Positions 1 to 64,000 of a stretch of DNA of 64,000 nucleotides are shown here, in pieces. The position numbers and the translations under genes are program-made. This DNA comes from Paracoccaceae bacterium (lineage in GTDB: Bacteria > Pseudomonadota > Alphaproteobacteria > Rhizobiales > Stappiaceae): positions 1 through 64,000 of the forward strand of contig PARB01000086.1 of NCBI GenBank assembly GCA_002709505.1, read 5' to 3'. Numbering within the stretch: the stretch's first letter is position 1; the number at the start of each line of letters is the position of its first letter. The notes beneath the pieces were generated by a model, which was not told the origin of the DNA, did not search any database, and saw nothing but the letters and a program-made list of their open reading frames with translations.

Positions 1-66
1 CCGCCAGCGGCCGCGGAAGATCCGCCGGCCGGTGGCGAACAGCTGGATTGTCGCGTTGGGGGTCAT
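1..66 (-). CDS. Partial ABC transporter permease, DppC/OppC-like (N-terminus only)
   Basis: Only the first 22 codons are inside the window; the gene runs off the left edge. Its ATG (64-66) overlaps the stop of the preceding permease gene (63-65) as ATGA, so the two are probably translationally coupled. The visible start, MTPNATIQLF followed by an Arg-rich stretch, fits the short cytoplasmic tail before the first membrane helix of a DppC-type permease. In peptide/nickel-type ABC importers the second permease normally follows the DppB-type one directly. The family call rests on position, since no domain is visible. Confidence 0.6.
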   Translation of the reverse strand, partial: MTPNATIQLFATGRRIFRGRWR

Positions 67-1010: not shown

Positions 1011-1159
1011 GTCGACGGTCTTTCCGCGTTCAGGAGGGGTGGTTCAGGCAGTGTGCCGCGATTTTCAGCGCATGTCGCGGGGCGCAAAGGCCCCTCCCGC
1101 GCCTCGGTCCGTGAGGACCGGGCAGGCGGCGCGGGAGGGGCAGCCGGGAGGAAGCCGGC

Positions 1160-2701
1160 TTACTTGTCGACGTTCCAGAAGTGCGGCCAGATCAGGGTGG
1201 CTTCACCCAGGCCGGTCAGCTTCGTGGAGGCGATGTTGTAGGTGTAGACATCGCCCGTCTTCATCGTCGGGACCTGCTCGTAGATCAGGGCCTGGATTTC
1301 GCCCCACAGCTTCTGACGCTCGGCCGGGTCGGCGCTTTCGGTAAACTTCGCCTTGAGCGCGGCCTTCTCCGGGGTCGTCCACCAGCCCGGATAGTTGTCG
1401 TTCATCACCGAGATCAGGATCGGATCCGGAACGAAGCCGTGGTGGGTGAAGAACAGGTCCCACTGGTCCGGCTCGGCGCGCTTCTTGATCAGGGTGGCCC
1501 AGTCATAGACCTGAAGGTCGATGTTGAAGCCGGCCTGGGCGAGCTGCTTGGTGTAGACGATGGCCGTGTCGTAGTGGAACGGATAGTTGGTGGAGACCAT
1601 GAACTTGATGGGCTCGCCGTTGTATCCGGCTTCCTTGGCCAGCGAGCGGGCCGTGTCGGCGTCGCCCTTGGAGAAGTTCTCCGCACCCGCTTCCGTGTAC
1701 CAGACGTTGCCCTTGGGCAGGAACGAGCCGTTGGCGCGCCACAGCTTGTCCGGGCCGATGGCGACCTGAAGCGCCGGCACCTTGTCGATGGCGGTCTGGA
1801 TGGCACGGCGCAGCGCGAAGTTTTCCTTCAGCGGGCCGTCCTTGGAGTTCATGAAGACGAGGCCGAAGAGCGGGCCGCCGTTGACGATGGTGGTGACCTG
1901 CGGATTGGCGTCCAGATCGGCGAAGAGATCGCCGGGGATGCTTTCGGCATAGTCGTAGTCGCCGGACTGCAGGCCGCTGACGCGGGTGCCGACGTCGGGC
2001 ACGGGGATGAAGCGCAGCGCATCGAAGTTGGCCTTGCGCTCGCCGGCGTAGCCGTCGGCGGCACCGGAGGGCGAATCATAGTCGTCGAAGCGGACCAGCT
2101 CGACGTGACGGTTGGCCTGCCATTCGCCGAACTTGTAAGGGCCGGTGCCGATGTAGTTTTCCGGGGAAATCGGCGCCTTGCCGGCGTCGGCGACGACGGA
2201 GGCCGGATAGATCGCCGGACCGCCGTTGATGAAGGCCATCAGGTTCTTCCAGGGGCCGAACGGCTTGGTGAGGCGAATCGTGACTTCATGGTCGCCGGTC
2301 GCCTCGACGCTTTCCACGTTGGAAAACAGCAGCGAACCGCGCGATCCGTGCTCGCCCCAGCGCTTCAGCGAGGCAACGACGTCGGCCGAGGTCATGTCGG
2401 TGCCGTCGTGGAAGGTGACGTCCTTGCGCAGGGTGATGACGATGGTCTTGCCGTCGTCCTCGAGGCGATCGCTTTCGGCGAGCAAGGGCTGGGGTGCATT
2501 GCTGGCGTCGAAGGTGTAGAGACCTTCGAACATGTGATGTGCAATGGTCGTCGCCAGGTCCGAGGTGACCACGTGCTGGTCGAGGCTCGGCGGCTCGCCG
2601 ACGGTCGCGTAGCGCAGCGTCCCGCCGGCATAGGCAGTGCTCGCCATCGACGCGGCAAAGGCCGCAGCGAGAATGGTTTTAAGGGGTCTGTTCAGCTTCA
2701 T
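1160..2701 (-). CDS. Extracellular solute-binding protein, family 5 (peptide/opine type)
   Basis: A 513-residue periplasmic binding protein for the ABC importer downstream. I chose the ATG at 2701 because it has a strong GGGAGGAG Shine-Dalgarno just upstream and begins a clear Sec signal peptide (MKLNRPLKTILAAAFAAS, cleavage near AYA-G). An in-frame ATG 84 bp further upstream would bury the signal peptide. The mature protein starts with GGTLRYATVGEPPSLDQH, the standard opening of family-5 binding proteins, and has the DVTFHDGTDMTSADVV block typical of DppA/OppA proteins. It is divergent from ridA and the RpiR regulator, with near-identical 15-bp motifs in the shared control region. The ligand is unknown; RidA and RpiR neighbours suggest an amino acid derivative or amino sugar, by inference only. 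Confidence 0.93.
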   Translation of the reverse strand: MKLNRPLKTILAAAFAASMASTAYAGGTLRYATVGEPPSLDQHVVTSDLATTIAHHMFEGLYTFDASNAPQPLLAESDRLEDDGKTIVITLRKDVTFHDGTDMTSADVVASLKRWGEHGSRGSLLFSNVESVEATGDHEVTIRLTKPFGPWKNLMAFINGGPAIYPASVVADAGKAPISPENYIGTGPYKFGEWQANRHVELVRFDDYDSPSGAADGYAGERKANFDALRFIPVPDVGTRVSGLQSGDYDYAESIPGDLFADLDANPQVTTIVNGGPLFGLVFMNSKDGPLKENFALRRAIQTAIDKVPALQVAIGPDKLWRANGSFLPKGNVWYTEAGAENFSKGDADTARSLAKEAGYNGEPIKFMVSTNYPFHYDTAIVYTKQLAQAGFNIDLQVYDWATLIKKRAEPDQWDLFFTHHGFVPDPILISVMNDNYPGWWTTPEKAALKAKFTESADPAERQKLWGEIQALIYEQVPTMKTGDVYTYNIASTKLTGLGEATLIWPHFWNVDK

Positions 2702-2750
2702 GCCAGTCTCCTCCCAGATCGTTCGCATGCCGGATATCGGCCGGTCGATA

Positions 2751-2837
2751 TGAAAGAAATTTTCAGAAATGGCAGGAATTGTCAATTCCAGATTTGCATA
2801 TCACGTAAATGACGCTAATTTATGAAAGAAACTTACA
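2751..2837. promoter_or_regulatory. Two copies of a TGAAA-N5-TTTCA-like operator in a divergent promoter
   Basis: The 151-bp AT-rich gap between the binding-protein gene (minus) and ridA (plus) contains TGAAAGAAATTTTCA at 2751-2765 and TGAAAGAAACTTACA at 2823-2837. The first is a perfect 5-bp inverted repeat with a 5-nt spacer; the second differs at two positions. One copy lies 50-64 bp upstream of the binding-protein start and the other 16-30 bp upstream of the ridA start. This placement suggests one regulator controls both directions. The RpiR-family gene next to ridA is the natural candidate, by inference. Confidence 0.6.
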
Positions 2838-2852
2838 AAACGGAGCTGACGC

Positions 2853-3242
2853 ATGACCACTGGAATCACCCGATACGACACTGCCGATCTCGCAGCCGGC
2901 GGCACGCGCCGTCCTTTCGCCAAGGCGGTGCGCGCAGGGGATTTCGTCTATGTCTCCGGTCAGGTGCCGGCGGAAAAGGGCGAGATCATCACCGGGGGAA
3001 TCGTCGCGCAGACGGAAAAGGTGATGGAAAACATCATCGAGGTTCTGGCGCTGGCCGGCTGCACCCTTGAGCACGTCGTGAAGGTCAACGTCTGGCTCGA
3101 CGATGCCCGCGACTTCTCCAGCTTCAACGGCGTGTTCGAGCGCTATTTCATCGATCATCCGCCGGCACGCTCCACCGTCCAGTCGCCGCTGATGGTGGAT
3201 GCCAAGGTCGAGATGGACGTGATCGCCTACAAGCCGGAATAG
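2853..3242 (+). CDS. ridA: RidA/YjgF family enamine/imine deaminase
   Basis: A 129-residue protein of the Rid superfamily, the usual length for these trimeric enzymes. RidA proteins hydrolyse reactive enamine/imine intermediates released by PLP enzymes; some relatives are 2-aminomuconate deaminases. Family landmarks are present: GDFVYVSGQVP near residues 29-39, and the C-terminal PARSTVQ segment whose Arg binds the substrate carboxylate. It is divergent from the binding protein and 64 bp upstream of an RpiR-type regulator. A 3-hydroxyanthranilate dioxygenase gene follows on the same strand, which makes a 2-aminomuconate deaminase role possible. The sequence alone cannot separate that from generic RidA activity. 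Confidence 0.9.
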   Translation: MTTGITRYDTADLAAGGTRRPFAKAVRAGDFVYVSGQVPAEKGEIITGGIVAQTEKVMENIIEVLALAGCTLEHVVKVNVWLDDARDFSSFNGVFERYFIDHPPARSTVQSPLMVDAKVEMDVIAYKPE

Positions 3243-3306
3243 GCGCGGGCCGCACGGGACCCTATCCTGCGGGACGGGGAGATCGGGAAAGGCGAGGTCG
3301 GGGAAC

Positions 3307-4185
3307 GTGAGCAAGGTGATCGACATCATTGCCCAGTTGCGGGGCTTGAACGGGGCGTTGCCCAAGCGCGAGCAGCATGTCGCCGACTATGTGCTCGCCA
3401 ATCTGGAAACCATCGCCTACCAGCGCCAGAGCGAGATCGCCAAGGGGGCGGGGGTGTCGGACGCCACCGTCAACCGCTTCTGCCAGTCGCTCGGCTGCGA
3501 CGGGTTCAAGGAGTTCAAGATCCGTCTGGCGCAAAGCGTGGCGGTCAGCCTCCAGTATCTCGGCGGGCAGGGCAACGACCGCTCGCCTGCCGACCAGCTG
3601 GTCGCGCAGGTCTTCGGGGCGCTGGTCGACACGCTCAACACCGCCCGCTCGCAGCTCGACGGGGCAGCACTTCAATCGGCCATCGACATGCTAGCCGACG
3701 CGCGGCGGATCGTGTTCTTCGGCGTCGGCGGCGGCTCTGCCAATGTCGCGCGCGAGGGGGCGAATCGCTTCTTCCGCCTCGGTATTCCGGCGGAGGCCCA
3801 TGCCGACGGCTATCTGCAGCGGATGATTGCCTCGACGCTGGAACGCGGCGACGTGGTCTTTGCGGTCTCCGCCAGCGGCACGCCGGCGGAGCTGCTCGAC
3901 AGCGTCGCCATCGCGCGTCAGTACGGCGCGGCGACGATCAGCCTGACCAAGGCCGCCTCCGACCTGGCGCAAGCCTGCGACATCGCCATCGGGGTCGATC
4001 TGCCGGAGGATCACGACATCTACAAGCCGAGCGCCTCGCGGCTTGCCTATATCGCGATTGTCGACGTGCTGGCGGCGGGGGCCGCGCGGCGTCGGCCGGA
4101 GCGGGTCAAGGAATACCTGCGCCGCATCCGCACCTCGCTGGTGCCGCTGTCGACCGACGTCGGGCCCAAGCCCATCGGCGACTGA
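3307..4185 (+). CDS. MurR/RpiR family transcriptional regulator
   Basis: A 292-residue regulator starting at GTG 3307, with a purine-rich stretch (GAGGTCGGGG) before it. The N-terminal ~77 residues form the RpiR helix-turn-helix, including REQHVADYVLANLETI and the recognition-helix region SDATVNRFCQSLG. A C-terminal sugar-phosphate isomerase (SIS) fold follows, visible as RIVFFGVGGGSANVAREG and FAVSASGTPAELLD. SIS domains of this family bind phosphosugars or related ligands. It follows ridA with a 64-bp gap and may bind the TGAAA-N5-TTTCA-like sites between ridA and the binding-protein gene. Regulation of the peptide-type importer is the simplest reading but is inference. Confidence 0.92.
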   Translation: MSKVIDIIAQLRGLNGALPKREQHVADYVLANLETIAYQRQSEIAKGAGVSDATVNRFCQSLGCDGFKEFKIRLAQSVAVSLQYLGGQGNDRSPADQLVAQVFGALVDTLNTARSQLDGAALQSAIDMLADARRIVFFGVGGGSANVAREGANRFFRLGIPAEAHADGYLQRMIASTLERGDVVFAVSASGTPAELLDSVAIARQYGAATISLTKAASDLAQACDIAIGVDLPEDHDIYKPSASRLAYIAIVDVLAAGAARRRPERVKEYLRRIRTSLVPLSTDVGPKPIGD

Positions 4186-4250
4186 CGCGCGCCGCCGACG
4201 GCCGCGTCGGCTATCGGCTTTCGTGATACCCGCTTTACTGAATGCTATTT

Positions 4251-4266
4251 GATTGAAATATCAATC
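4251..4266. promoter_or_regulatory. Palindrome GATTGA-AATA-TCAATC upstream of the dioxygenase gene
   Basis: A perfect 6-bp inverted repeat with a 4-nt spacer, in an AT-rich island of an otherwise GC-rich 178-bp gap between the RpiR gene and the 3-hydroxyanthranilate dioxygenase gene. It ends 97 bp before the dioxygenase ATG, a plausible operator position. The core differs from the FNR consensus TTGAT-N4-ATCAA. The binding protein is unknown. Confidence 0.5.
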
Positions 4267-4279
4267 TGCCGTCTCCTGA

Positions 4280-4906
<627 letters not shown>

Positions 4907-4966
4907 GCACGCAGGGCGCCCGGTCGCGGCGCCGCTTCGCTCTTTTCACCATCATCAACAACGTGA

Positions 4967-6004
<1,038 letters not shown>

Positions 6005-6095
6005 GTCCCGGCCCGACACCCGCAACCCCGCATCCGGACGGTCAGGGCCCGAGGGCCTTGCGGTCCGGGTGCGCGGCGTGGATGGATAACGCGCG

Positions 6096-6668
6096 ATGCT
6101 CTACAGGATCTCCGCCTTCTGGGCGCGGTGCGAAATCGCGCTGGCGGCCGCCCTTGCCGCCACGATCACCGGGCTGATCCTTCTCAATGTGGTCACCCGG
6201 TCCGCCCATATGGCGATCTACTGGATCGACGAGACGGCGATCACCGCCATGGTCTGGATGACGTTTCTGGCCGGCTCCGCCGCCGTCCACCGGCGCTCCG
6301 GCGTCGCCGTGACGCTTGTCTACGACATGCTCTCGCCGCGGGTCGCGCGCTGGTGGCGGCTTGGCCTCGATGTCGTGACGGTCGTCTTCGCCGTCGCGAT
6401 GATCCGGTTCTGCCTGCTGTGGTTCGATCCGCTCGCGCTTTATGCCGCCGGCTTCGACACCCTGGCCTTCCAGGGCGAGACCTTCAATTTCATCTATGCC
6501 GAGCCGACGGTGACGCTCGGCATTCGCAAGGCCTGGGTCTGGTCCATCATGATCGTCTTCACCTTCGGACTGACGCTGCATGCCGCGTCCAACCTCGTTG
6601 CGAGCCTTTGCGTGCTCGCCGGCGGTGACGATCCGCAGGCGGACGCCGACGCGGGGACACGTGCATGA
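6096..6668 (+). CDS. TRAP transporter small permease, DctQ family
   Basis: A 190-residue inner-membrane protein with four predicted helices (roughly residues 13-35, 42-65, 90-112 and 145-172), the usual DctQ topology. The WIDETAITAMVWMTFLAGSAA segment includes the conserved W-x-E-E/D-like region of small TRAP subunits. It starts 91 bp after the binding-protein gene. Its stop (6666-6668) overlaps the ATG of the large permease (6665) as ATGA, indicating coupled translation. It would form the membrane complex with DctM and take substrate from the upstream DctP protein. Confidence 0.9.
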   Translation: MLYRISAFWARCEIALAAALAATITGLILLNVVTRSAHMAIYWIDETAITAMVWMTFLAGSAAVHRRSGVAVTLVYDMLSPRVARWWRLGLDVVTVVFAVAMIRFCLLWFDPLALYAAGFDTLAFQGETFNFIYAEPTVTLGIRKAWVWSIMIVFTFGLTLHAASNLVASLCVLAGGDDPQADADAGTRA

Positions 6669-7923
6669 CGGCGATCGTCTTTCTTCTTCTGCTGTTCGGC
6701 GCGGTGCCCATCGCGCTGGTGCTGGCGCTGTCTGCAATCTGGTACATCCAGGCGAGCGGCAACGAGGTGCTCTACGCAAGCTTCGCCCAGCAGCTCTATT
6801 CCGGGATCGAGAGCTACGGACTGCTGGCGATCCCGCTGTTCATGCTCACCGGCGAACTGATGAACGAGGGCGGGCTGACCCGGCGGCTGATCCAGGCGGC
6901 GCGCGTCTTCGTCGGCGGGTTTCGCGGCGGGCTTGCCTATATCAACCTGCTCGCCAACATGTTCATGGCCGCGATCATCGGCTCGGCCGCCTCGCAGATC
7001 GCGGTGATGGCCCGTGCCATGGTGCCGGCGATGGAGGCGGAGGGCTACCGCCGCGATTTCGCCGCCGCTACGACGGCGGCCGGCGGCCTGCTGTCGCCAA
7101 TCATTCCGCCGTCCATGCTCTTCGTGATCTACGGTGTTCTGGCGCAGATCCCCATCGGCGACATGTTCATGGCCGGCATCATTCCCGGCCTGATGCTGTC
7201 GGCGTCCTTCTTCGTGATCATCGCGCTTGTCGGTCTGACGCAGTCGTTTCCCAAGGGCAAGTGGATGAACCGCAGCGAGGCGCTGGCAGCCCTGCGCGAC
7301 TGCCTTCCGGCGGCGCTCATTCCCGTCGCCATTGTCGGCGGCATCCTGCTCGGGGTGGCGACGCCGACGGAATCGGCCGCCGTCGCCTCGCTGATCGCCT
7401 TCCTGATCGGGCGGTTCATCTACCGGGATCTCAAGATCACCCGGCTCGGCGCCCTGTTCGTGCGCACCGCGACCAGCTCCAGCCTGGTGATCTTCCTGAT
7501 CGCCGCCGCCAATGTGTTCGGCTGGGTGATCATCTACGAGGCGCTGCCGCAGAAGCTCGCGGGCCAGATCACGTCGATCACCTCGATCCCTCCGTCTTCC
7601 TCTTGATCGTCAACCTGTCGCTCTTCGTCATCGGCATGGTGATCGACGGCATCGCCGCACTGATCCTGGTGGTGCCGATCCTGCTGCCGATCGCGCAGAT
7701 GCATTACGACATCGATCCGTTCCAGTTCGGCGTGATCGTCTGCCTCAACCTGGTGCTCGGCCTTTTGACGCCGCCGGTCGGCGCTGGGCTCTATATCGCC
7801 TCGGCGATGAGCGGCACGCCGCCGATGCAGATCGTGCGCGCGCTCTATCCGTTCCTGATCGCGGTGGCGCTGATCCTGGTGCTGTTGAGCTGGGCGCCGA
7901 TCCTGACGACGGCGCTGATCTGA
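6665..7923 (+). pseudogene. TRAP transporter large permease, DctM family, frameshifted near 7585
   Basis: The reading frame from ATG 6665 encodes DctM helices (for example AIPLFMLTGELMNEGGLTRR and LLSPIIPPSMLFVIYG) but stops at TGA 7604-7606 after 313 codons. The missing C-terminal ~110 residues (from DPSVFLLIVNLSLFVIGM to the end at 7923) continue in another frame. The family is normally about 425 residues. Restoring one base in the run around 7585 (CTCGATCCC to CTCGGATCCC) would rejoin the frames as TSDPSVFLLIVNL, giving about 420 residues. So one base has been lost, either truly or through a sequencing error. The truncated protein would lack the last helices and is unlikely to transport. 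The rest of the operon shows no decay, which suggests a recent mutation or an assembly error. Confidence 0.88.
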
Positions 7924-7948
7924 CGGGAACGGCGCTCGCCCCGCGCTG

Positions 7949-8902
7949 TTACAGCGTTGCGGCGACCGCCCGCAATTCGTCGAGGAAGAAGGCGGCCGCC
8001 GGTGTCAGGCCCTTGGTCTTGCGGTAGGAGACACCCACGGGGCCGATGGGAATCGGCACGTCCCAGGGCACGCGTGCCAGGATACCGGCTGCGATATCCT
8101 GTTCCACCACGTGATTGGGCAGGATGCCGATCATCGTCGAGGTGGCGAGCAGGCTGCGGTTGGCGAGGAAGGACACCGATTCCACCGCGTTGATCGGCGA
8201 GCTCAGGCCGTGGTCGAGGAACACCAGATCGATCTGGCGCCTGAGCGTCGTTTCCGGCGGCGGCAGGATCCAGCCATAATCCATCATGTCCTGGAAGGTG
8301 ACGCGCTTGCGCCCTTGCAGCGGGTGGCTCATGCCGGTGACGGCGATGACCTTTTCCTCGTAGAGGCGCTCCTGCAGCAGTTCGTCGCGGTGGCGATGGG
8401 TCGGCAGCCGTCCGACGACGAGATCGACCTCGCCTGAGCGCAGCGCCGGCATCAGCACCTCGTTGGTGCCTTCCTGGATCTTGATCGACAGGCCCGGCTT
8501 TTGCGCCAGCACCCGGGCGATGGTCTTGGGCAGGAGCAGCGCGGAGGCGGCGAGCAGCGTGCCGATGACGATGCGCCCGCTCGATCCTTCCGCCAGATCG
8601 TCCAGTTCCTGCGCGGCGTGGGAAATCTGCGCGAAGATCAGCTTGCCGTGGCGCGCCAGCGCCTCGCCGTAGATCGTCGGCACCACGCCCCGGTTGGTGC
8701 GCTCGAACAGGAGCACGCCGAAGTCGGCTTCCAGATCCTTGATCAGCTTGGTGGCGGCGGGCTGCGACAGGTTCAGCTCGCGCGCGGCATGGAGAATGCT
8801 GTTGTGGCGCTCGACCGCGACCAGCAGGCGCAGCTGCTTGAGCTTGAGGCGGGTCAGGATCCGCTCGACGATGCGGACGTGCTTCTGGTTCGGTTCGCTC
8901 AT
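7949..8902 (-). CDS. LysR family transcriptional regulator
   Basis: A 317-residue regulator of normal LysR length. The N-terminal winged helix-turn-helix is clear: LKQLRLLVAVERHNSI followed by NLSQPAATKLIKDLE near residues 44-58. A co-inducer-binding domain follows (GRIVIGTL, EVDLVVGRLPTH). The protein resembles GbpR/PcaQ-like regulators that control sugar or aromatic-acid uptake genes. It is convergent with the TRAP operon and upstream genes on the minus strand include nadX, 69 bp away. A TATC-N9-GATA site lies in the nadX/molybdenum hydroxylase promoter region and could be its target. Effector and regulon are inferred, not shown. Confidence 0.92.
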   Translation of the reverse strand: MSEPNQKHVRIVERILTRLKLKQLRLLVAVERHNSILHAARELNLSQPAATKLIKDLEADFGVLLFERTNRGVVPTIYGEALARHGKLIFAQISHAAQELDDLAEGSSGRIVIGTLLAASALLLPKTIARVLAQKPGLSIKIQEGTNEVLMPALRSGEVDLVVGRLPTHRHRDELLQERLYEEKVIAVTGMSHPLQGRKRVTFQDMMDYGWILPPPETTLRRQIDLVFLDHGLSSPINAVESVSFLANRSLLATSTMIGILPNHVVEQDIAAGILARVPWDVPIPIGPVGVSYRKTKGLTPAAAFFLDELRAVAATL

Positions 8903-8971
8903 CGCAGCGTCTTCAGTGTTGTGCCGGGAGCCGGGATGGCGGGACAGCGCGCACAGCCATAGCCCAACGGA

Positions 8972-9772
8972 TCAGGCAATGCGAATGGCGTCTTCAAGCC
9001 GCGCCAGCGTGTCGACCATGCTCATCGCGGTCAAGGCGGAGGATTTCGGATTGTCCGGCATGGCGCGGCCGGAAATCTGGATGGCGAAGGAGCCGAAGGC
9101 GCCCTCGACGGCAAGCTCGTGCCGGTTCTCGCGACACGCGGGATCGGAAATCAGCTCGACCTCGGTCTCGTCGAAGCCGATCCCGGCAAGCGCGATGCTC
9201 GCCGTGACATTGGCGTTCTTGGGATAAAGCGCCGCCGCCTGACGGGCGGTGCCGCGAAAATGCACCTGCGCCTCGCTTTGCGCGTCGAGGTCGATCCGCT
9301 CTTCCGCCGGCGTACCGCGCCAGCTCGCGGGCGGCTTGCGGCCCCGGTAGATCACGCGGGTCAATCCGCCCTGACGCGCCGCGCTCAGGATATCGAGGCC
9401 GCCGATCGCGCCCGACACGATCCGGAGCGCAGTCCCGCCGCGCCGGGCGGCCTCGCTCAGGTTGCGGTAGAGATCCGCGTCGGCGAGGGCCCCGGCGGAG
9501 ACGCTGTAGAGATCGATGCCGGCTGCCAGAATATCGGGTCCGTGCTCGCGCAGGCCGGCATGGCCGGCGCAGTCGAGCACCAGGTCGGGACGCTGCGGCA
9601 GATCGCCCACACTGTCGGCGATCGCAATCGCGCCGGGCGCGCAGGCGCGGGCATCCTCCAGCCGTCCGGCACGCCCGATGATGCCGCACAGGGTCACAGT
9701 GTCCCGCTCGGCGATCGCCGTCATGACATATCGGGCAATTGCGCCATAACCGATGATGGCGACATGTTTCAT
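8972..9772 (-). CDS. nadX: L-aspartate dehydrogenase family protein
   Basis: A 266-residue NAD(P)-dependent dehydrogenase matching the NadX/AspDH family in length and layout. The Rossmann motif is at the start (HVAIIGYGAIARYV). SVSAGALADADLY and RIVSGAIGGLDIL form the middle of the fold, PKNANVTASIALAG is the family signature, and the RENRHEL segment carries the His of the active site. The reaction interconverts L-aspartate and iminoaspartate/oxaloacetate plus ammonia. Iminoaspartate feeds quinolinate and NAD synthesis. The ATG at 9772 has a GGAGCTGCCC ribosome-binding site. It diverges from an orphan molybdenum hydroxylase. With a 3-hydroxyanthranilate dioxygenase nearby, two enzymes around quinolinate/aspartate chemistry occur within 6 kb, though a shared pathway is not demonstrated. 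Confidence 0.9.
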   Translation of the reverse strand: MKHVAIIGYGAIARYVMTAIAERDTVTLCGIIGRAGRLEDARACAPGAIAIADSVGDLPQRPDLVLDCAGHAGLREHGPDILAAGIDLYSVSAGALADADLYRNLSEAARRGGTALRIVSGAIGGLDILSAARQGGLTRVIYRGRKPPASWRGTPAEERIDLDAQSEAQVHFRGTARQAAALYPKNANVTASIALAGIGFDETEVELISDPACRENRHELAVEGAFGSFAIQISGRAMPDNPKSSALTAMSMVDTLARLEDAIRIA

Positions 9773-9830
9773 GGGCAGCTCCAGTCAGGTCTCGACGCTT
9801 GCGATTTTGCGCCAATCCGCGCGCTCCAGT

Positions 9831-9847
9831 TATCCAATTTCCAGATA
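9831..9847. promoter_or_regulatory. Candidate LysR box TATC-N9-GATA
   Basis: TATC-CAATTTCCA-GATA lies in the 145-bp divergent promoter between nadX (start 9772, minus) and the molybdenum hydroxylase gene (start 9918, plus). The symmetry and spacing fit the T-N11-A class of LysR-type sites, and a LysR gene is encoded just downstream of nadX. Assignment of that regulator to this site is inference. Confidence 0.5.
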
Positions 9848-9917
9848 GCAGGTTTGAAACACAGTATTTGCCGCGATATCTGATTGCCGCCACTGTCGGC
9901 TCGAATTCCCGAAGGGC

Positions 9918-12089
9918 ATGCCGCCCGCCAGCAGAAGACGAGTTTTGGCCGTGACAGTCATTTCCGCCCGGGACCGCGAGCGCGCGGGATCGCAGCAACC
10001 GCAGATCGGCCAACCCTTGCGCCGGCGCGAGGACCTTCGCCTGGTTACCGGAGCGGGCTGCTATGTCGCGGATGTGCCGTTGCAGGACCCCTTGCATGTC
10101 GCCTTCGTGCGCAGTCCCGTGCCCGGTGGGCGGATCGTCGGATGCGACGTGCAGGATGCCCGCGACATGCCCGGCGTGGAACAGGTCGTGCGTGCCGCCG
10201 ATCTCGGGGACCTGGGACGGTTGAGCATCAATCCGGTGCTGGAACCTTTCGGGTCGGCGCCCTTTCCCGTGCTGGCGGTCGAGCGGGTCTCCGCCGTCGG
10301 CCAGCCGCTAGCGGCCGTGCTGGCGTCAGCGCCCGCTGAGGCGCTGGATGCCTGCGACGCGGTTCTGGTCGAGATCGACGACGACGAGGCCGCCGTCGAG
10401 CCGGCCGGCTTTCGCGGCGCCTGGTCGTCGGGCGATTGCGATCAGGCTCTGGCCGGTGCCGCGCATCGCGTTTCTGTGAGGGTCGACCATCCGCGCTTGG
10501 CGCCCGCTTCGCTGGAACCGCGCGGCATTGCCGTTGCCTATCACGATGAGAGCGACAGCGTGACCGTCTGGCTGTCGACGCAGACCCCCCACCGCGCGCG
10601 GCGGGAACTGTCGCGCATCCTGTCCGTCGCGCCCGAGCGCATCCAGGTCGCGGCCCCCGATGTCGGCGGCGCCTTCGGCATGAAGGCTTCGCTCTATCCG
10701 GAAGAGGTGCTGTGCGTCTGGGCCGCGCTGCGGTTCAAGCGCGCGACCCGCTGGATTTCCTCGCGCGGCGAGGATTTTCTGGCGGCAAGTCACGGCCGGG
10801 GCGCAACGAGCGAGGGCACCCTCGGTGTCGATGCCGACGGGCGATTCCTGGCGTTGAAGGCGCGGGTCGACGCGCCGCTCGGGCACTGGCTGCCGAGCAG
10901 CGCCGCGATCCCCGCCTGGAATGCGGGGCGCATCCTGCCGAGCGGCTACAAGGTCGCGGCGGTCGATATTCGCTCAAACGCCGAAACCTCCAACACGGCG
11001 GCGGTCGGGATCTATCGCGGTGCCGGGCGCCCGGAGGCCAACTGCCTGATGGAGCGGCTGGTGGATGCGGCGGCGGCCGCGACCGGGATCGATCCGCTGG
11101 AGATCCGCCGGCGCAATTTGGTGACCGATACCGCCTTTCCGCATGAGGGGCCGACCGGGGTCGTGCTCGATTCCGGCCGTTATGCGGAGCTGCTGGACCA
11201 TCTTGCGCGCGAGACGGAGTACGACGCGCGCCGCGCAGAGGTCGCGGCGCGCCGGGCGCGCGGCGAGGTCGTTGGGCTTGGCGTTGCCTTTTATATCGAG
11301 CCCTGCGGCACGGGATGGGAAAGCGCGCGCGTCACGCGCAATCCGGACGGTACGGCGCTTGTCGCCTTCGGCGGCAGCACGCAAGGGCACGGACGCGAGA
11401 CGGCGCTCGCCCAGATCGCTGCGGATGCGCTCGGCCTTTCGCCTGAGGCCATTGAGGTCGTCTGCGGATCGACGGCGGACTGCCCGACCGGTATCGGCGC
11501 GCTCGCCAGCCGCAGCACGGCAATCGGCGGCAGCGCGGTGCTGAAGGCCTGCGAGGCGTTGCTTGCCCGCATCGTTGGTGGCGCGGACACCAGCGTGCCC
11601 GTCAGCGAAGAGGTGGTCTATGAGGCTGCCGGCGAGGCCTGGGGATATGGCGCCTATCTGGTGCAGATGGCAATCGATCCGGAGACCGGCGATCCGACGC
11701 TTGAACATGTCGCCTGCGTCGATGATGCCGGCACGGTGATCAACCCGATGCTGGTCGAAGGCCAGATCCGGGGCGGCTTCGCGCAAGGGCTCGGCGAGGC
11801 GCTGATGGAGCGGCTGGTCTATGACGGCGACGGCCAGCTCGTGACCGGATCGCTGATGGACTATGCGCTGCCGCGTGCAAGCGACATTCCGGCCTTTGCG
11901 ATTTCCAAGATGGAGACCAGCTCGCCCAACAATCCGCTGGGCGCCAAGGGGGTCGGCGAGGCCGGCACCATCGGCGCGCCCGCCGCCATTCTCAATGCCG
12001 CCATCGACGCGCTGCGTCCCCATGGCGTGACCGACCTTCCGATGCCGCTCACCAGCGAAACGCTGTGGCGCGCGCTTCACCGAACGTGA
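9918..12089 (+). CDS. Xanthine dehydrogenase/CoxL-family molybdopterin-binding subunit, orphan
   Basis: A 723-residue molybdenum hydroxylase large subunit. The N-terminal a/b hammerhead domain covers about residues 35-150 (GQPLRRREDLRLVTGAG, VRSPVPGGRI). Cofactor-binding regions follow, such as PDVGGAFGMKASLYPEE, IYRGAGRPEANCLMERL and FGGSTQGHGRETALAQIA. The catalytic Glu is in KGVGEAGTIGAP near the C-terminus. These enzymes hydroxylate aldehydes or N-heteroaromatic carbons. The protein has no iron-sulfur or FAD domain, and no small or medium subunit gene lies beside it, so electron-transfer partners must be encoded elsewhere. ATG 9918 has GAAGGGC before it; GTG 9951 is a possible alternative. 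It overlaps or abuts the DHDPS-family gene, suggesting a two-gene operon. Confidence 0.9.
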   Translation: MPPASRRRVLAVTVISARDRERAGSQQPQIGQPLRRREDLRLVTGAGCYVADVPLQDPLHVAFVRSPVPGGRIVGCDVQDARDMPGVEQVVRAADLGDLGRLSINPVLEPFGSAPFPVLAVERVSAVGQPLAAVLASAPAEALDACDAVLVEIDDDEAAVEPAGFRGAWSSGDCDQALAGAAHRVSVRVDHPRLAPASLEPRGIAVAYHDESDSVTVWLSTQTPHRARRELSRILSVAPERIQVAAPDVGGAFGMKASLYPEEVLCVWAALRFKRATRWISSRGEDFLAASHGRGATSEGTLGVDADGRFLALKARVDAPLGHWLPSSAAIPAWNAGRILPSGYKVAAVDIRSNAETSNTAAVGIYRGAGRPEANCLMERLVDAAAAATGIDPLEIRRRNLVTDTAFPHEGPTGVVLDSGRYAELLDHLARETEYDARRAEVAARRARGEVVGLGVAFYIEPCGTGWESARVTRNPDGTALVAFGGSTQGHGRETALAQIAADALGLSPEAIEVVCGSTADCPTGIGALASRSTAIGGSAVLKACEALLARIVGGADTSVPVSEEVVYEAAGEAWGYGAYLVQMAIDPETGDPTLEHVACVDDAGTVINPMLVEGQIRGGFAQGLGEALMERLVYDGDGQLVTGSLMDYALPRASDIPAFAISKMETSSPNNPLGAKGVGEAGTIGAPAAILNAAIDALRPHGVTDLPMPLTSETLWRALHRT

Positions 12090-46317: not shown

Positions 46318-47109
46318 GTGCTTCGGCAAGCATCGCGGGATTTCAGGCATCATCGCAAGGTTCGAATCGTGACGGGTTTTCTGGCAACGCATGGAACGAG
46401 CGGACTGGTTCTCAGTCTGGACCACGAGGTGGCGAACGAGCGCATCGTCTCCGAGATCAAGCGCGGCCGCTACGAAGCGAGCGAACTTGCCATCGCGTCG
46501 CGTTTCGTGCGCCCCGGCGACCGTGTACTGGAGCTGGGGGCCGGCGTCGGCTTCATCTCCGCCGGCGTGATGCGCAACGTGGGCCCCGCCTATTACGCGG
46601 CGGTGGAGGCCGATGCGAGGCTCATCCCGCATATTCGCGAAACCCATGCGCGCAACGGCGTGAGCGGGGTCGAGATCATCAACGCGGCCTTCACCAGCGA
46701 TCCGGAGGTGCTGGATAGGGGGACGGTGGCCTTTACCCTGCACCGGGAGTTCTGGCGCTCCGGGATCGGACAGGATCAGCCGGGCAGTGCGGAAACGGTC
46801 AGCGTTCCTGCCCGGGACGTGTCCCGGTTCCTGGCGGAAAAGGCGATCACCGTGCTGATCGCGGATATCGAAGGCGCCGAGCTGGAGCTGCTGCGCCACA
46901 TCGACACCGCGCGGCTGGAAAAGATCGTGCTGGAACTGCATCCCCAGCGGATCGGCAAGGCGGGGGTGCTGGAAATCTTCCAGATCCTCTGTGCCCGGGG
47001 GTTTGCCTATAATACGGCCTTGTCCGAGGGATCCGTGGTGTGTTTCGAGGCGGTCCGGCAACAGGCGGCCGAAGCCGGCGGCGTGAGCGTTTCCTCAGCA
47101 CGGGCCTGA
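46318..47109 (+). CDS. FkbM family SAM-dependent methyltransferase
   Basis: A 263-residue methyltransferase if started at GTG 46318. GTG 46369 (after AAGGTTCG) would give 246 residues and may be the better start. The SAM-binding motif I is DRVLELGAGVGFISAGV, followed by YYAAVEADARLIPHI. TVLIADIEGAELELLRHI is the FkbM motif with the acidic pair. These enzymes methylate sugar or polyketide hydroxyls. The gene stands alone, so substrate is unknown; it could modify a surface polysaccharide. Confidence 0.85.
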   Translation: MLRQASRDFRHHRKVRIVTGFLATHGTSGLVLSLDHEVANERIVSEIKRGRYEASELAIASRFVRPGDRVLELGAGVGFISAGVMRNVGPAYYAAVEADARLIPHIRETHARNGVSGVEIINAAFTSDPEVLDRGTVAFTLHREFWRSGIGQDQPGSAETVSVPARDVSRFLAEKAITVLIADIEGAELELLRHIDTARLEKIVLELHPQRIGKAGVLEIFQILCARGFAYNTALSEGSVVCFEAVRQQAAEAGGVSVSSARA

Positions 47110-47388
47110 CAGGTCAAGACCTACGGAACCGGTACCTGCATCGTCGTAATTTTTACAATGCAAATCGATCCCAATTCGGAAAGTGAATGAATAAAAATTT
47201 TGATTAATCCGAATAAATTACAGTTCTTATTCTCCGTTCTTGAATGTATTAACCATGTTTTTTCGAAAATTTGCATTTGCTTGTTAAAGGCTCGTTATAG
47301 CTGTTAGCTTAATTCTCGTGCTATGGTGCAATATCTGCTCCGAAACACCTTTGTCGGGTGCTCGTGGCAGTGGCTAGAGCGAGATGTC
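47110..47388. promoter_or_regulatory. AT-rich intergenic control region before the sulfite-oxidase-fold/GGDEF-EAL pair
   Basis: About 180 bp (47140-47320) is strongly AT-rich. A 7-bp inverted repeat ATTCGGA (47174-47180) / TCCGAAT (47208-47214) flanks a run of A and T. No confident -35/-10 pair or RNA gene was found. It probably holds the promoter of the two-gene operon at 47389. Confidence 0.45.
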
Positions 47389-47874
47389 ATGAAAAGTCTT
47401 CGACTGCTTTGCGCCGGGTTCCTCCTGCTGGTGTCCGTGCTTGCGAGTTCGGTCCTGGCCGACGATGCGGTCGTTCTGACCATCGACGGTCGCATTGCCG
47501 GCGATACGGCTGTCGACTTCACGCTTGCCGACCTTCAGGCGCTTGGCGTGGAGCGCATCGAGACAACGACGCCGTGGCATGACGGCGCGATGGTCTTCGA
47601 GGGCGTTTCCCTATCGAGGCTGATGGAGCATGTCGGAGCGCAGGGGGACAAACTGACCGCCATCGCTCTCAACGACTTCTACACCGAAATCCCGCTTTCC
47701 GATGCCGAGGCCTATGGCGTCCTGCTCGCCTATCGCGCGAACGGGTCGATCCTGACGGTGCGCGACAAGGGGCCGCTTTTCGTCATTTACCCGTTCGACC
47801 GGTATCCCGACCTGAGGAACGAGCTGTATTATTCCCGTTCCATTTGGCAGTTGCGCCGGCTGACGGTCAAATAA
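47389..47874 (+). CDS. Exported molybdopterin/sulfite-oxidase-fold domain protein without catalytic Cys
   Basis: A 161-residue protein. ATG 47389 starts a Sec signal peptide (MKSLRLLCAGFLLLVSVLAS, cleavage near VLA-D). The mature part resembles the oxidoreductase molybdopterin-binding fold: VVLTIDGRIAG, DFTLADLQALG, FEGVSLSRLMEHVG, DFYTEIPLSDAEAYGVLLAY and GPLFVIYPFD. It has no Cys, so the Cys that ligates molybdenum in true sulfite-oxidase-fold enzymes is absent. The gene is 7 bp upstream of a membrane GGDEF-EAL protein. I infer a periplasmic sensor or ligand-binding partner for c-di-GMP signalling, not an enzyme. Confidence 0.82.
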   Translation: MKSLRLLCAGFLLLVSVLASSVLADDAVVLTIDGRIAGDTAVDFTLADLQALGVERIETTTPWHDGAMVFEGVSLSRLMEHVGAQGDKLTAIALNDFYTEIPLSDAEAYGVLLAYRANGSILTVRDKGPLFVIYPFDRYPDLRNELYYSRSIWQLRRLTVK

Positions 47875-61388: not shown

Positions 61389-61778
61389 GCGACAGGCCCG
61401 GGCGTCCGGGCCGATTGCCGTCCGAGACACCTTGCCCGGCGCTCAGAAGCGTCTCCGGACTGCGGACAACATGATCTTCCCTTTGCCAAGATCCGGTGTG
61501 CGGCGCGAGGCTGCGCCGCATCTCGCTAGCACTCGGTCAAACCCTCGACGGACCGCCCGCACCGGCCTTCGGAGGTGGATTAAAATTCTGAAATTTCGAT
61601 GATATTTATAATATAATACTAACTATACACGCAAATCGTGTAAAATTGTTATTTGGGTTGCAATCAAAACTCAACGGAAGCGGCTCAAATTCACTTGTAA
61701 GTTGCGATATCGAATGTCACTCTTCTCGCATAGGTAGATTTCTGAATTTCTTCTAATTTATCGCGATGCGAGGACGCC
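61389..61778. promoter_or_regulatory. 390-bp intergenic region with AT-rich promoter and palindrome
   Basis: The first 170 bp are GC-rich and hold only a weak hairpin GGCCCGG-GCGT-CCGGGCC (61395-61412). From about 61575 the DNA is strongly AT-rich, with two overlapping TATAAT boxes (61607-61612, 61612-61617) but no convincing -35. A perfect inverted repeat TACACG-CAAAT-CGTGTA (61626-61642) follows. The composition shift and palindrome suggest a controlled promoter, maybe foreign, for the large gene at 61779. Confidence 0.5.
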
Positions 61779-64000
61779 ATGTTTGACATCACCACAGTGC
61801 GCGAAATCGATTACGGCCCGAACAGCGTTGTCTATGTCTATCAGGACCACGACAATCCCAAGCTCTGGTACATGGTGCCGGTTCCCACGCTGCGGACGTT
61901 GAATGGCGCTCCCGCCTTCTCGATCACTGAATATACCAGGAACGGCGGGGGGATATCGGGGCTTTGCACCTTCGAGATGGAGCTCGTCCAGCCGCTGGCG
62001 GCCCGACAGGCCGCGGAGCAGGTGCTGGGCGACGACATCAGCTGGGGCGGGTTCACCTGGGTCGGCGGCACGGCCTATTTCTACTATGACATCGAGGGCG
62101 AGACGGAGGTTCTGGCGGTCGAGCCCACCCTCTACGGGACCAATGTCGCGGCCTTCCAGATCCCGCTCGAGACACCGGAGGCGCTGAACACCTTCAAGGC
62201 CGCCTATTCCGAAGGCGGCGGCGCCTCGCCCTTCCGCATCGAATACGACATGCAGGTGCTGACCAAGCTTCTCGGCGCCAAGGCCACGGTCAAATACGTC
62301 GCCGAGGCCGCCATCCACTACGAGAAGACCTACAAGACGGTTCGCGATACCTGGGGCAACCAGAAACAGGTCCTGCAGGACGTCAAGCAGGTGCTGCAGC
62401 AGTCGGGCGCGGGCGAGGTGCATGTGGAAATCGGCGCCGGCAGCTCGCAGGAGCTGGAGCAGCGCGTGCGCGACTGGGGCTGGACGACGCTGGAGAACCA
62501 GGTGGCGAACACGGTCGCGGCCGCCGCGACCATGGCCACGGGCCCCAATCCGGTTTCGGCGACAACCTCCTTCGAGCAGACCTACAGCGAAGACACGGTG
62601 ATCGACTGGTCGACGCCCGTCTCAAGCTTCATGCGCAAGTTCTCGACCGAGGAGTGGAACAAGCTCTTCATCGAGGTCGACAACCGCAAACTGTCGGTCG
62701 TGTTCAACCTGATCGGCCAGCTGACCCGCACGGACAATGGCGATGCGGTCGCCGAATCCGTGACGGTCACCGTCGACTATCCGACGCGAACGACCGGCAA
62801 CACCTTCGTGCTGATCGTTTCCGACGGCGCCCAGTCGTCGATGATCTACGAGGCACCCGGCGATTTTCCCGGCGGGTCCTACAATGCCGAGTTCACCTAT
62901 TCCTATGTGATCCAGTTCAAGGACGGCACCAGCTTCCAGAGCGACCCCGTCACCACCACCGACACATTGATCAACATCACGCCGAACGTTTTCGGCACGC
63001 GTCAGGTGAGCTTTATCGGCCAGTCGATCCCGTTCCTGACCGGCTCGCCGCCGAAAGGCACCGTCAAGGCGGTCAATATCGACTTCTTCTTCGCGCCGCC
63101 CTCCGGCAGTCCGGCCATCGTCCAGACCAAGACGATGACCGACAACGGCGAAAACGGAGCGGTGCTGTTCGAGAGCTTCTACAATCTCCCCATCGGCCAG
63201 GCCTACAGCTACCGGCTGCGCTACCAGATGTCGGACAATTCCGAGGTGATCTCGCAACCGCCGGGCGCCTTGTCCAGCGCACCGGACAATACCAATTCCG
63301 GCAATGCGGATATCGTGTTCGTGAAGGATCCGAAGGGGCTGTTCACCCAGTTCACGCTGCGTGCCTTCAACTATACGAACCAGAACCAGGACCTGCTGCT
63401 GGTCGATGTCAACGCGCAGTATTTCGATCCGGCGAATGATCCCAACGGCTGGCTCTACGAGAACACCTGGTCGAACTGGCAGCCCACCGGTCTGCTCAGC
63501 TTCGCCGAGCCGCGCTGGAATTTCGAGGCGGTCGATAACACCAACTCGGCCTATTACAACATCGCGGGAACGATCTTCTACTCGGACGGGTCCGACTTCA
63601 CGCTCGCGAACTACAAGCAGTCGAGCGAGTACAAGACGCTGACGATCACCAATACGATCGAGAATTACAGCGTTCTTGTCGACACCACCCTGATCGACTG
63701 GACCAAGGTGGCCAGCGTCAATCTGACGATGTTCCAGCTGAAGAAGACGGCGAAGGAGGAACTCGGCGACACGCTGCCCGATTTCTTCACCAAGCCGCGC
63801 GAGGAGATGACCAGCGAGGAACGGGCGACCGCGGCCGGGTCGCAGGACAACCTGCTGCTGTTCAGCATTCTCAGCCCGGCCGGTACGCCGCAGGTCGACG
63901 ATCTCAACCGTTACTACGGCGTCCAGCGGCTGCGCGACGATCCGCTCGTTGAGTTCTATTACACCGCCGTCTACGTGATGAAGAGCGACGGCGAGCAGCG
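61779..64000 (+). CDS. Large beta-rich protein of unknown function, partial (runs off right edge)
   Basis: Open from ATG 61779 (AGGA upstream) to the window end, at least 740 codons with no stop. No signal peptide is seen. The first ~170 residues (MFDITTVREIDYGPNSVVYV, YMVPVPTLRTLNGAPAF, CTFEMELVQPL) look like a distinct domain. A helical/coiled stretch at about 170-245 follows (VRDTWGNQKQVLQDVKQVLQQ). After that come repeated beta-sandwich-like units: DWSTPVSSFMRKFS at about 270 and DWTKVASVNLTMFQ near 645 look like equivalent openings. Rich in Thr, Asn, Tyr and Phe, poor in Cys. I do not recognise the family. It could be a surface or structural protein exported by a route not needing a Sec signal. 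Confidence 0.8.
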   Translation, partial: MFDITTVREIDYGPNSVVYVYQDHDNPKLWYMVPVPTLRTLNGAPAFSITEYTRNGGGISGLCTFEMELVQPLAARQAAEQVLGDDISWGGFTWVGGTAYFYYDIEGETEVLAVEPTLYGTNVAAFQIPLETPEALNTFKAAYSEGGGASPFRIEYDMQVLTKLLGAKATVKYVAEAAIHYEKTYKTVRDTWGNQKQVLQDVKQVLQQSGAGEVHVEIGAGSSQELEQRVRDWGWTTLENQVANTVAAAATMATGPNPVSATTSFEQTYSEDTVIDWSTPVSSFMRKFSTEEWNKLFIEVDNRKLSVVFNLIGQLTRTDNGDAVAESVTVTVDYPTRTTGNTFVLIVSDGAQSSMIYEAPGDFPGGSYNAEFTYSYVIQFKDGTSFQSDPVTTTDTLINITPNVFGTRQVSFIGQSIPFLTGSPPKGTVKAVNIDFFFAPPSGSPAIVQTKTMTDNGENGAVLFESFYNLPIGQAYSYRLRYQMSDNSEVISQPPGALSSAPDNTNSGNADIVFVKDPKGLFTQFTLRAFNYTNQNQDLLLVDVNAQYFDPANDPNGWLYENTWSNWQPTGLLSFAEPRWNFEAVDNTNSAYYNIAGTIFYSDGSDFTLANYKQSSEYKTLTITNTIENYSVLVDTTLIDWTKVASVNLTMFQLKKTAKEELGDTLPDFFTKPREEMTSEERATAAGSQDNLLLFSILSPAGTPQVDDLNRYYGVQRLRDDPLVEFYYTAVYVMKSDGEQ

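What the first reader, a model, noticed from the sequence alone, without database searches (positions are those of the whole stretch)
61389..64000. Large unrecognised gene with an AT-rich palindromic promoter at the right edge
At least 740 codons, no signal peptide, a distinctive N-terminal domain, a helical stretch and repeated beta-type units with similar openings (DW-S/T-x-V-S/A-S). The promoter region is much more AT-rich than the genome and carries TACACG-N5-CGTGTA. It may be a horizontally acquired surface or secreted structural protein.
Basis: partly seen in the sequence, partly recalled or inferred. Interest (0 to 1): 0.5.

Follow-up and report, generated by a model that had tools for sequence, protein, structure and literature searches.

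The report
Possible terpene-tagged protein operon in Stappia
The unknown gene at the window's edge opens a four-gene operon that also encodes a tryptophan-prenyltransferase-like enzyme, a terpene-cyclase-like enzyme and a lectin-like protein, so these marine bacteria may decorate a large protein with a ring-shaped lipid, which remains untested.

Summary
The reading frame is real. It has 786 codons once the contig is followed past the window and heads an operon A-B-C-D with short or overlapping junctions. The genus is Stappia, inferred from named contigs. The operon is in the own genome and in 12 of 13 other genus members; A was found in none of 46 other genera.

B has the PT-barrel fold of tryptophan prenyltransferases (model of a 92%-identical ortholog, Z 25 to PriB), with Glu67, Arg78, Lys142 and Tyr144 invariant in 18 of 18. 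C resembles single-domain class II terpene cyclases: DxDD in 17 of 18, weak sequence similarity. D has a weak PLL-type lectin match and a helical hydrophobic core. A-B-C occurs without a detected D in Azospirillum, Calothrix and a further genus.

Known enzyme NctPC fuses these two activities and puts a cyclised geranylgeranyl group on a peptide tryptophan (PMC13290415, passages). My best reading is the same chemistry on a large protein, most likely A. The fold of B is well supported, C's assignment moderately; the substrate is inferred. The palindrome is neither conserved nor unusual; recent transfer is not supported.

The parts
61570..61778 (+). AT-rich upstream region of the operon (GC 36.4%)
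   Evidence: the 200 bp upstream are 31-40% GC in 13 of 13 Stappia loci
61626..61642 (.).
61694..61739 (+). upstream block with several columns identical in 13 of 13 Stappia loci; candidate regulatory element, function unknown
61768..61774 (+). GCGAGGA, likely ribosome-binding site of gene A
   Evidence: sequence
61779..64000 (+). gene A (786 aa; ends at 64139 of contig C86, past the window): N-terminal domain about 1-190, helical stretch about 190-255, beta-rich remainder. The other three genes of the operon lie wholly past the window on the same strand of contig C86: B 64144-65169, C 65162-66115, D 66084-69779 (L002:4144-5169, 5162-6115, 6084-9779)
   Evidence: low-confidence secondary structure

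Best explanation
Gene A is the first gene of a four-gene operon that makes a large cytosolic protein (A), two enzymes that would decorate it, and a lectin-like partner (D). Step 1 (fold shown by model and by conserved residues, activity inferred): B transfers an isoprenoid from its diphosphate to an aromatic side chain, most likely a tryptophan. Step 2 (motif and weak homology shown, activity inferred): C, a single alpha/alpha-domain class II terpene cyclase, protonates the attached chain through its DxDD motif and folds it into rings. Step 3 (inferred from co-occurrence): the acceptor is a ribosomally made protein, most likely A, whose tryptophans W192, W233, W277 and W641 are invariant. Step 4 (inferred, weakest): the polycyclic lipid lets A, which has no signal peptide or membrane segment, bind a membrane, and D adds sugar recognition and perhaps membrane insertion, giving a toxin-like or defensive complex. 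It is the chemistry of NctPC-type peptide enzymes, split into two genes and linked to a large protein instead of a short peptide precursor.
For: Operon: A-B junctions of 4-9 bp and C-D overlap of 32 bp in 13 of 13 Stappia loci, B-C overlap of 8 bp in 11 of 13. B: model of the S. stellulata ortholog (91.8% identical) has pLDDT 77.9, pTM 0.80; best structural matches PriB 5jxm Z 25.1 over 303 residues, tied with 6zs0 and 6zrz; the 50 entries listed are all aromatic prenyltransferases; Foldseek E 5.9e-11. The B profile finds TleC 4yzj at E 1.4e-4. E67, R78, K142, Y144 invariant in 18 of 18. C: DxDD in 17 of 18; C profile to squalene-hopene cyclase E 0.0012 and to HAD-type drimenol synthase E 0.29. 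A, B and C adjacent in Stappia, G413, Azospirillum, Calothrix and, with several A copies, G524; G726 has A, B and C too. C relatives sit beside NHLP peptide precursors in G632 (340 bp away) and in G723, where a homolog of the N-terminal domain of fused proteins and NHLM exporters are also present, so the C family is probably used on ribosomal peptides. [quoted passage not shown]
Against: No substrate, product or activity is shown. B and C diverge faster (41-92% and 47-94% identity to the query) than A and D (73-96% and 73-97%). C of S. taiwanensis (L024) lacks the stretch with DxDD. G158 has A-like and B-like genes but no C found in the 20 kb read, and the Pararhizobium cluster has A-like genes with no B or C found by profile. 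In C's match to squalene-hopene cyclase no single segment is significant (best i-E 5.8), and no model of C was made. Bacterial DMATS enzymes commonly act on free tryptophan (several of the matched structures are bound to it), and B misses the curated DMATS cut-off by far (about 14-16 bits against 163.85). The model of A was too poor to search.
Confidence: 0.4

Rival explanations
1. B and C make a small diffusible prenyl-indole-type terpenoid from free tryptophan or another small aromatic; A and D bind, carry or deliver it, or merely share the operon.
For: The closest solved relatives of B are small-molecule prenyltransferases, several crystallised with free tryptophan. Class II cyclases ordinarily act on small terpenoids (established knowledge).
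Against: I recognised no other small-molecule biosynthetic gene within the four-gene operon. A stays beside B and C on unrelated replicons where D was not found. Relatives of C sit beside ribosomal-peptide precursors.
Confidence: 0.22
2. The modified protein is D, not A: D, with lectin-like and hydrophobic parts, is the membrane-active component and A is its scaffold or chaperone.
For: D is as conserved as A, overlaps C by 32 bp in 13 of 13, and has hydrophobic segments.
Against: A-B-C exists without a detected D homolog in the Azospirillum and Calothrix loci (D gave no blastp match there), and D homologs occur without B or C found in Stanieria and Methylocystis.
Confidence: 0.13
3. B and C have lost catalysis and serve as folding or binding partners; A and D work unmodified as an adhesin or toxin.
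For: Fast divergence of B and C; the DxDD stretch is missing in one species; a relative without a detected C, G158.
Against: The catalytic-type residues are among the most conserved positions: E67, R78, K142, Y144 in 18 of 18 and DxDD in 17 of 18.
Confidence: 0.12
4. One reading: a recently acquired surface or secreted structural protein with a regulated palindromic promoter.
For: AT-rich upstream region; genus-restricted distribution; plasmid-borne relatives.
Against: No signal peptide; operon with enzyme-like genes; syntenic in the genus (11 of 12 loci); palindrome in 1 of 13.
Confidence: 0.08
5. B and C modify a short ribosomal peptide (NHLP type) encoded elsewhere in the genome.
For: C-family genes lie beside NHLP precursors in G632 and G723.
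Against: The only NHLP match in the own genome (below cut-off) is a nitrile hydratase alpha subunit by its VCTLCSC motif (motif recalled). Matches over the cut-off occur in 1 of the 13 Stappia genomes searched, on another contig than A, and not in G413, G524, G726 or the three plasmids. No conserved small frame was seen upstream of A.
Confidence: 0.05

Closest known systems
NctPC and ChrPC (fused peptide prenyltransferase-cyclases of ribosomal peptides; via PMC13290415, passages; original paper by Hubrich et al. not held)
   Same: A PT-barrel prenyltransferase domain (NctPC) working with a single-domain class II cyclase; terpenoid on tryptophan of a ribosomal product.
   Different: Here two separate genes, no peptide precursor of NHLP type in the operon, and a 786-residue protein plus a 1231-residue protein in its place. 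I did not have NctPC's sequence, so relatedness to it was not tested.
DMATS/PriB/IptA/CymD-type aromatic prenyltransferases
   Same: Fold of B (Z about 25) and invariant Glu/Arg/KxY residues.
   Different: 8-18% sequence identity in the structural matches, far below the family cut-offs; protein-linked context.
Squalene-hopene cyclase and single-domain class II cyclases (MstE as named in the review; HAD-type drimenol synthase TC-beta domain)
   Same: DxDD(T) motif and weak profile similarity of C; single-domain length (317 aa).
   Different: No second barrel domain, by length; remote similarity only.
CV39L/PLL beta-propeller lectins
   Same: N-terminal part of D, E 1.4e-6.
   Different: 27.7 bits against a cut-off of 350; fused to a helical hydrophobic core shared with proteins of Stanieria, Methylocystis, Undibacterium and Kovacikia.
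HBL/NHE alpha-helical pore-forming toxins
   Same: One such gene (PF05791, E 2.2e-12) lies two genes upstream of the A gene on the Azospirillum plasmid.
   Different: No such match in the four Stappia operon proteins at E <= 1.

Membership tests
DMATS / ABBA aromatic prenyltransferases (gene B) | PT-barrel fold of alpha-beta-beta-alpha repeats | tested here: met
   Model pLDDT 77.9, pTM 0.80 (ortholog L037); 5jxm Z 25.1, rmsd 3.3, 303 aligned; model residues 18-328
DMATS / ABBA aromatic prenyltransferases (gene B) | conserved Glu (base), Arg and Lys-x-Tyr (diphosphate) residues | tested here: met
   E67, R78, K142, Y144 invariant in 18 of 18, E and K in register with TleC 4yzj; the roles of these residues are recalled
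DMATS / ABBA aromatic prenyltransferases (gene B) | curated sequence-family cut-off (TIGR03429, PF11991) | tested here: not met
   TIGR03429: 2 of 14 members at best E 0.018, 3 of 5 B proteins at 0.007-0.018, about 14-16 bits against 163.85. Pfam scan of 14 members: no Trp_DMAT. Hence 'of that fold and probably activity', not filed as a member of the curated family
DMATS / ABBA aromatic prenyltransferases (gene B) | prenyl transfer to an aromatic acceptor | not testable with these tools
   needs assay
Class II terpene cyclases (gene C) | catalytic DxDD motif | tested here: met
   17 of 18: DxDDT in 16, DADDS in L029; the stretch is missing in L024; aligned to the SHC DVDDTA as a weak segment
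Class II terpene cyclases (gene C) | alpha/alpha-barrel fold | tested here: inconclusive
   No model made. Profile E 0.0012 to 1gsz without a single significant segment; C profile also hits long frames (663-720 aa) at E 1e-4 to 3.9e-4 that look like SHC; hhalign to these E 3.3e-4, probability 38%
NctPC-type prenyltransferase-cyclase systems | P and C domains fused in one protein | tested here: not met
   separate genes B and C in 13 of 13 Stappia loci; a possible C-B fusion is in Paracoccus L075 (N-terminal half to C E 1.6e-4, C-terminal half to B only E 0.017)
NctPC-type prenyltransferase-cyclase systems | peptide precursor encoded alongside | tested here: not met
   no NHLP precursor at the locus or, by TIGR03793, in the own genome; no conserved small frame upstream
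NctPC-type prenyltransferase-cyclase systems | isoprenoid placed on tryptophan and cyclised | not testable with these tools
   needs mass spectrometry
CV39L/PLL lectins (gene D, N-terminal part) | family model over its cut-off | tested here: not met
   NF052350 E 1.4e-6 but 27.7 of 350 bits; 8q83_A E 0.031

The most novel reading that the evidence does not exclude
A bacterial system that terpenylates a large folded protein: a split tryptophan prenyltransferase plus single-domain class II cyclase places a polycyclic isoprenoid on A, turning a signal-less cytosolic protein into a membrane-seeking component that works with a lectin-guided partner, D. The A-B-C set would then be a portable module found beside different effectors (HBL-like toxin in Azospirillum, lectin-helix protein in Stappia).
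Probability: 0.3. Interest if true: 0.85.

Novelty: new variant of a known kind. Interest (0 to 1): 0.6.

Why it matters
Protein lipidation by prenylation is familiar from eukaryotic cysteine prenylation, and in bacteria from short peptides (PMC13290415, passages). If a bacterium attaches and cyclises a terpenoid on a large protein, that is a new use of this enzyme pair and perhaps a new way for a signal-less protein to reach membranes. The operon is small, conserved through a genus that includes cultured strains, and has a sharp mass-spectrometry prediction, so it can be tested directly.

Tried and rejected
Structure of A: predicted from the window's 740 residues with eight Stappia orthologs; mean pLDDT 40.8, so no fold search was made with it.

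Palindrome as operator: rejected as unconserved.

Phage or defence origin: no relative of A in viral contigs (1 stretch matched a pattern, none confirmed), no PADLOC match for A-D at E <= 1. D's PHROGs matches to tape-measure proteins (best E 3.7e-5) fall on its helical stretch and I read them as compositional, which was not tested further.

Named-genome scan with A: 8 loci, all Stappia, from only two peptide patterns, so it says little about range. A in the sampled phylum: 3 of 398 genomes including the own. C in the sampled class: 11 of 385 including the own, four of them weak matches to long frames that look like squalene-hopene cyclases.

Paracoccus C-B fusion (L075:28834-30930): profile search with B and C gave no match. 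By hhalign the N-terminal half matches C (E 1.6e-4, probability 50%), the C-terminal half matches B only at E 0.017 and 0.011 (probability 3-4%) though in register at the P-L-E...R and K-L-Y motifs; mismatched control pairs gave E 0.06-0.9. So the B half is suggestive only. Fused proteins in the other order (L076, L078, L079) have SHC-like C-terminal halves (L076 and L079 by NCBIfam); their N-terminal halves match B only at E 0.015. The L077 frame picked is probably a wrong frame; it was in the alignment and left out. One of four frames in the 'SHC' alignment (L060, 444 aa) is probably not an SHC frame.

PF11991 search in G413 and G524: 0 of 2. Nine paper searches showed no description of this operon in their listings; the library holds only part of the literature, so this is no proof of absence.
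Full report
What is there. The frame starting at ATG 61779 is intact to the window edge and ends at base 64139 of the same 101,426-base contig: 786 codons, gene A. Three genes follow on the same strand, numbered along the contig: B 64144-65169 (341 aa, 4 bp after A), C 65162-66115 (317 aa, overlapping B by 8 bp) and D 66084-69779 (1231 aa, overlapping C by 32 bp, with an AGGAGG before its start). In 13 Stappia loci (own plus 12) the A-B gap is 4-9 bp, the C-D overlap 32 bp in all 13, and the B-C overlap 8 bp in 11 (start codons were chosen by script). After D comes a convergent gene, a dienelactone hydrolase family protein. So this is an operon of four.

Where it occurs. Of 101 genomes (own, 13 of the same genus, the rest relatives), 13 have A: the own and 12 of the 13 same-genus genomes listed; the one without (G001) is 89% complete with 7% contamination. 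None of 46 other genera has it. All 12 loci have B, C and D too. The gene directly upstream, an ABC-type metal-transporter permease by its sequence (name recalled), is there in 11 of 12. Identity to the query is 73-96% for A, 73-97% for D, 41-92% for B and 47-94% for C. A full A-B-C-D operon is in one genome of another family and genus, G413. A-B-C without a detected D is on plasmids of Azospirillum lipoferum 4B and Calothrix sp. NIES-4101. In G524 several A-like genes precede B and C, and G726, of the same genus, has an A-like gene before B and C. In a genome of another class, G158, several A-like genes and a B-like gene (E 4e-6) occur, without a C in the 20 kb read. In a sample of 398 genomes of the phylum, 3 have A.

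Gene A. No Pfam match, and only weak NCBIfam and PHROGs matches (E 0.056 and 0.05). No hydrophobic segment. The structure model failed (mean pLDDT 40.8), so the N-terminal domain remains without a fold and the beta units are only suggested.

Gene B. The first profile of 14 sequences found no known prenyltransferase in the PDB. A broader one of 11 sequences did: TleC 4yzj E 1.4e-4 (i-E 0.004), two DMATS-type chains at 0.067-0.075, and an unrelated repressor at 0.58 as a measure of noise. Weak TIGR03429 (DMATS) matches appear in 3 of 5 tested members and in 2 of 14 in another set. The model of the S. stellulata ortholog (L037, 91.8% identical, eight Stappia sequences) is good from about residue 35 to 326 (pLDDT 77.9, pTM 0.80) and has ten strands in pairs. 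Foldseek's best is 6zrx at E 5.9e-11; by VIA-align PriB 5jxm, 6zs0 and 6zrz tie at Z 25.1, 3.3-3.5 A over 301-305 residues, and the 50 entries shown are all aromatic prenyltransferases. E67, R78, K142 and Y144 are invariant in 18 of 18. I take B as a PT-barrel prenyltransferase with retained active-site residues; its acceptor is unknown.

The profile of 12 finds squalene-hopene cyclase at E 0.0012 by the sum of weak segments and a HAD-type drimenol synthase at 0.29. Inside genomes the C profile reaches frames of 663-720 aa at E 1e-4 to 3.9e-4, of which three contain DVDDT. The HAD-type enzyme is of interest because its cyclase is a single TC-beta domain doing a protonation-initiated class II reaction (PMC12365925, passages). 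C is thus most likely a single-domain class II cyclase; the fold was not modelled.

Gene D. Residues 28-149 match the CV39L lectin model at E 1.4e-6 but far under its cut-off. The core (about 630-970) is shared at 21-24% identity with plasmid proteins of Stanieria, Methylocystis, Undibacterium and Kovacikia, one of them annotated with a LamG domain. The Stappia protein has four stretches with mean hydropathy of 1.6 or more, two of them overlapping.

Why a peptide or protein substrate. Relatives of C sit beside NHLP peptide precursors: in G632, 340 bp from one (TIGR03793 E 9.3e-18), and in G723 with two precursors and NHLM exporters in the same 10 kb. In the G723 cluster a 375-aa protein is homologous (blastp E 1e-5 to 1e-10 in a tiny set) to the N-terminal domain of fused proteins in G632 and G574 whose C-terminal halves carry DxD(S/T)T and, in the two scanned, match squalene cyclase models. 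The G723 C-like protein itself has DLDS, not DxDD. [quoted passage not shown] I saw passages and part 1 of 4 of its references). The original paper was not held. B plus C look like that pair in separate genes. In the own genome the only NHLP match, under the cut-off, is a nitrile hydratase alpha subunit by its VCTLCSC motif (recalled), so the usual peptide substrate is missing, and A is the ribosomal product that stays with B and C. That A is the acceptor is my inference, at about 0.4 together with the rest of the mechanism.

What it may do. The Azospirillum set lies downstream of an HBL/NHE-family gene (PF05791 E 2.2e-12), and the Paracoccus A-like cluster lies beside genes annotated as trypsin-like peptidase, EAD1-domain protein, phospholipase D-like and tyrosinase. 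These neighbours, D's lectin-like region and the lack of a signal peptide suggest a cytosolic weapon or anti-predator complex released by lysis, but this is the weakest part of the argument.

Promoter. AT-richness is real and shared (13 of 13), the palindrome is not (1 of 13), and a block about 40-85 bp before the start is partly shared.

Verdict. A conserved operon, not described in the listings of my paper searches, in which known enzyme chemistry seems coupled to a large protein: a new variant of a known kind.

Noticed in passing
L075 (Paracoccus plasmid pNSM5TCa), 12558-30930: Cluster with several A-like genes, a phospholipase D-like gene, a tyrosinase gene and a 698-aa protein with an SHC-like N-terminal half and possibly a B-like C-terminal half; annotated EAD1-domain, trypsin-like and ATP-binding genes lie just upstream.
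   Followed up: partly
L066 (G723), 3-10562: NHLP peptide precursors with NHLM exporters, a C-like gene (DLDS in place of DxDD) and a gene homologous to the N-terminal domain of fused prenyltransferase-cyclase-like proteins; looks like a split peptide-terpenylation cluster.
   Followed up: partly
L024:7532-8530 (matches Stappia taiwanensis contig L031): Gene C has an in-frame gap in the alignment that removes the stretch with the DxDD motif; a possible natural loss of cyclase activity.
   Followed up: no
L061:10925-14029 (G524): One A-like protein of 1034 aa carries an insert that looks like an OmpA-type domain by eye; not tested.
   Followed up: no
L074:18179-19945 and L044:10442-12079: Similar proteins with an 'NQGAAGTC' motif, papain-like by eye, lie between A-like genes in Pararhizobium and G158; Pfam gave no family at E <= 0.1 for the G158 one.
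   Followed up: no
L046:7668-9083 and L047:7123-8727: D homologs in Stanieria and Methylocystis each have an unrecognised gene for a protein of about 470-530 aa directly upstream; no Pfam family at E <= 0.1.
   Followed up: no
L018:20908-21948 (Calothrix plasmid): Protein that resembles the endonuclease/exonuclease/phosphatase fold by eye, with altered active-site positions (recalled motif); no Pfam match at E <= 0.5.
   Followed up: no
G005:C4:185928, G010:C1:3053653, G011:C2:587023: NHLP-like matches below the family cut-off lie about 34-37 kb upstream of A in three Stappia genomes; no counterpart was found in the own genome.
   Followed up: partly
window 47081-47400: The lowest-GC trough of the window (200-bp GC down to 0.325) lies here, lower than the one upstream of A; its content was not looked at.
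   Followed up: no
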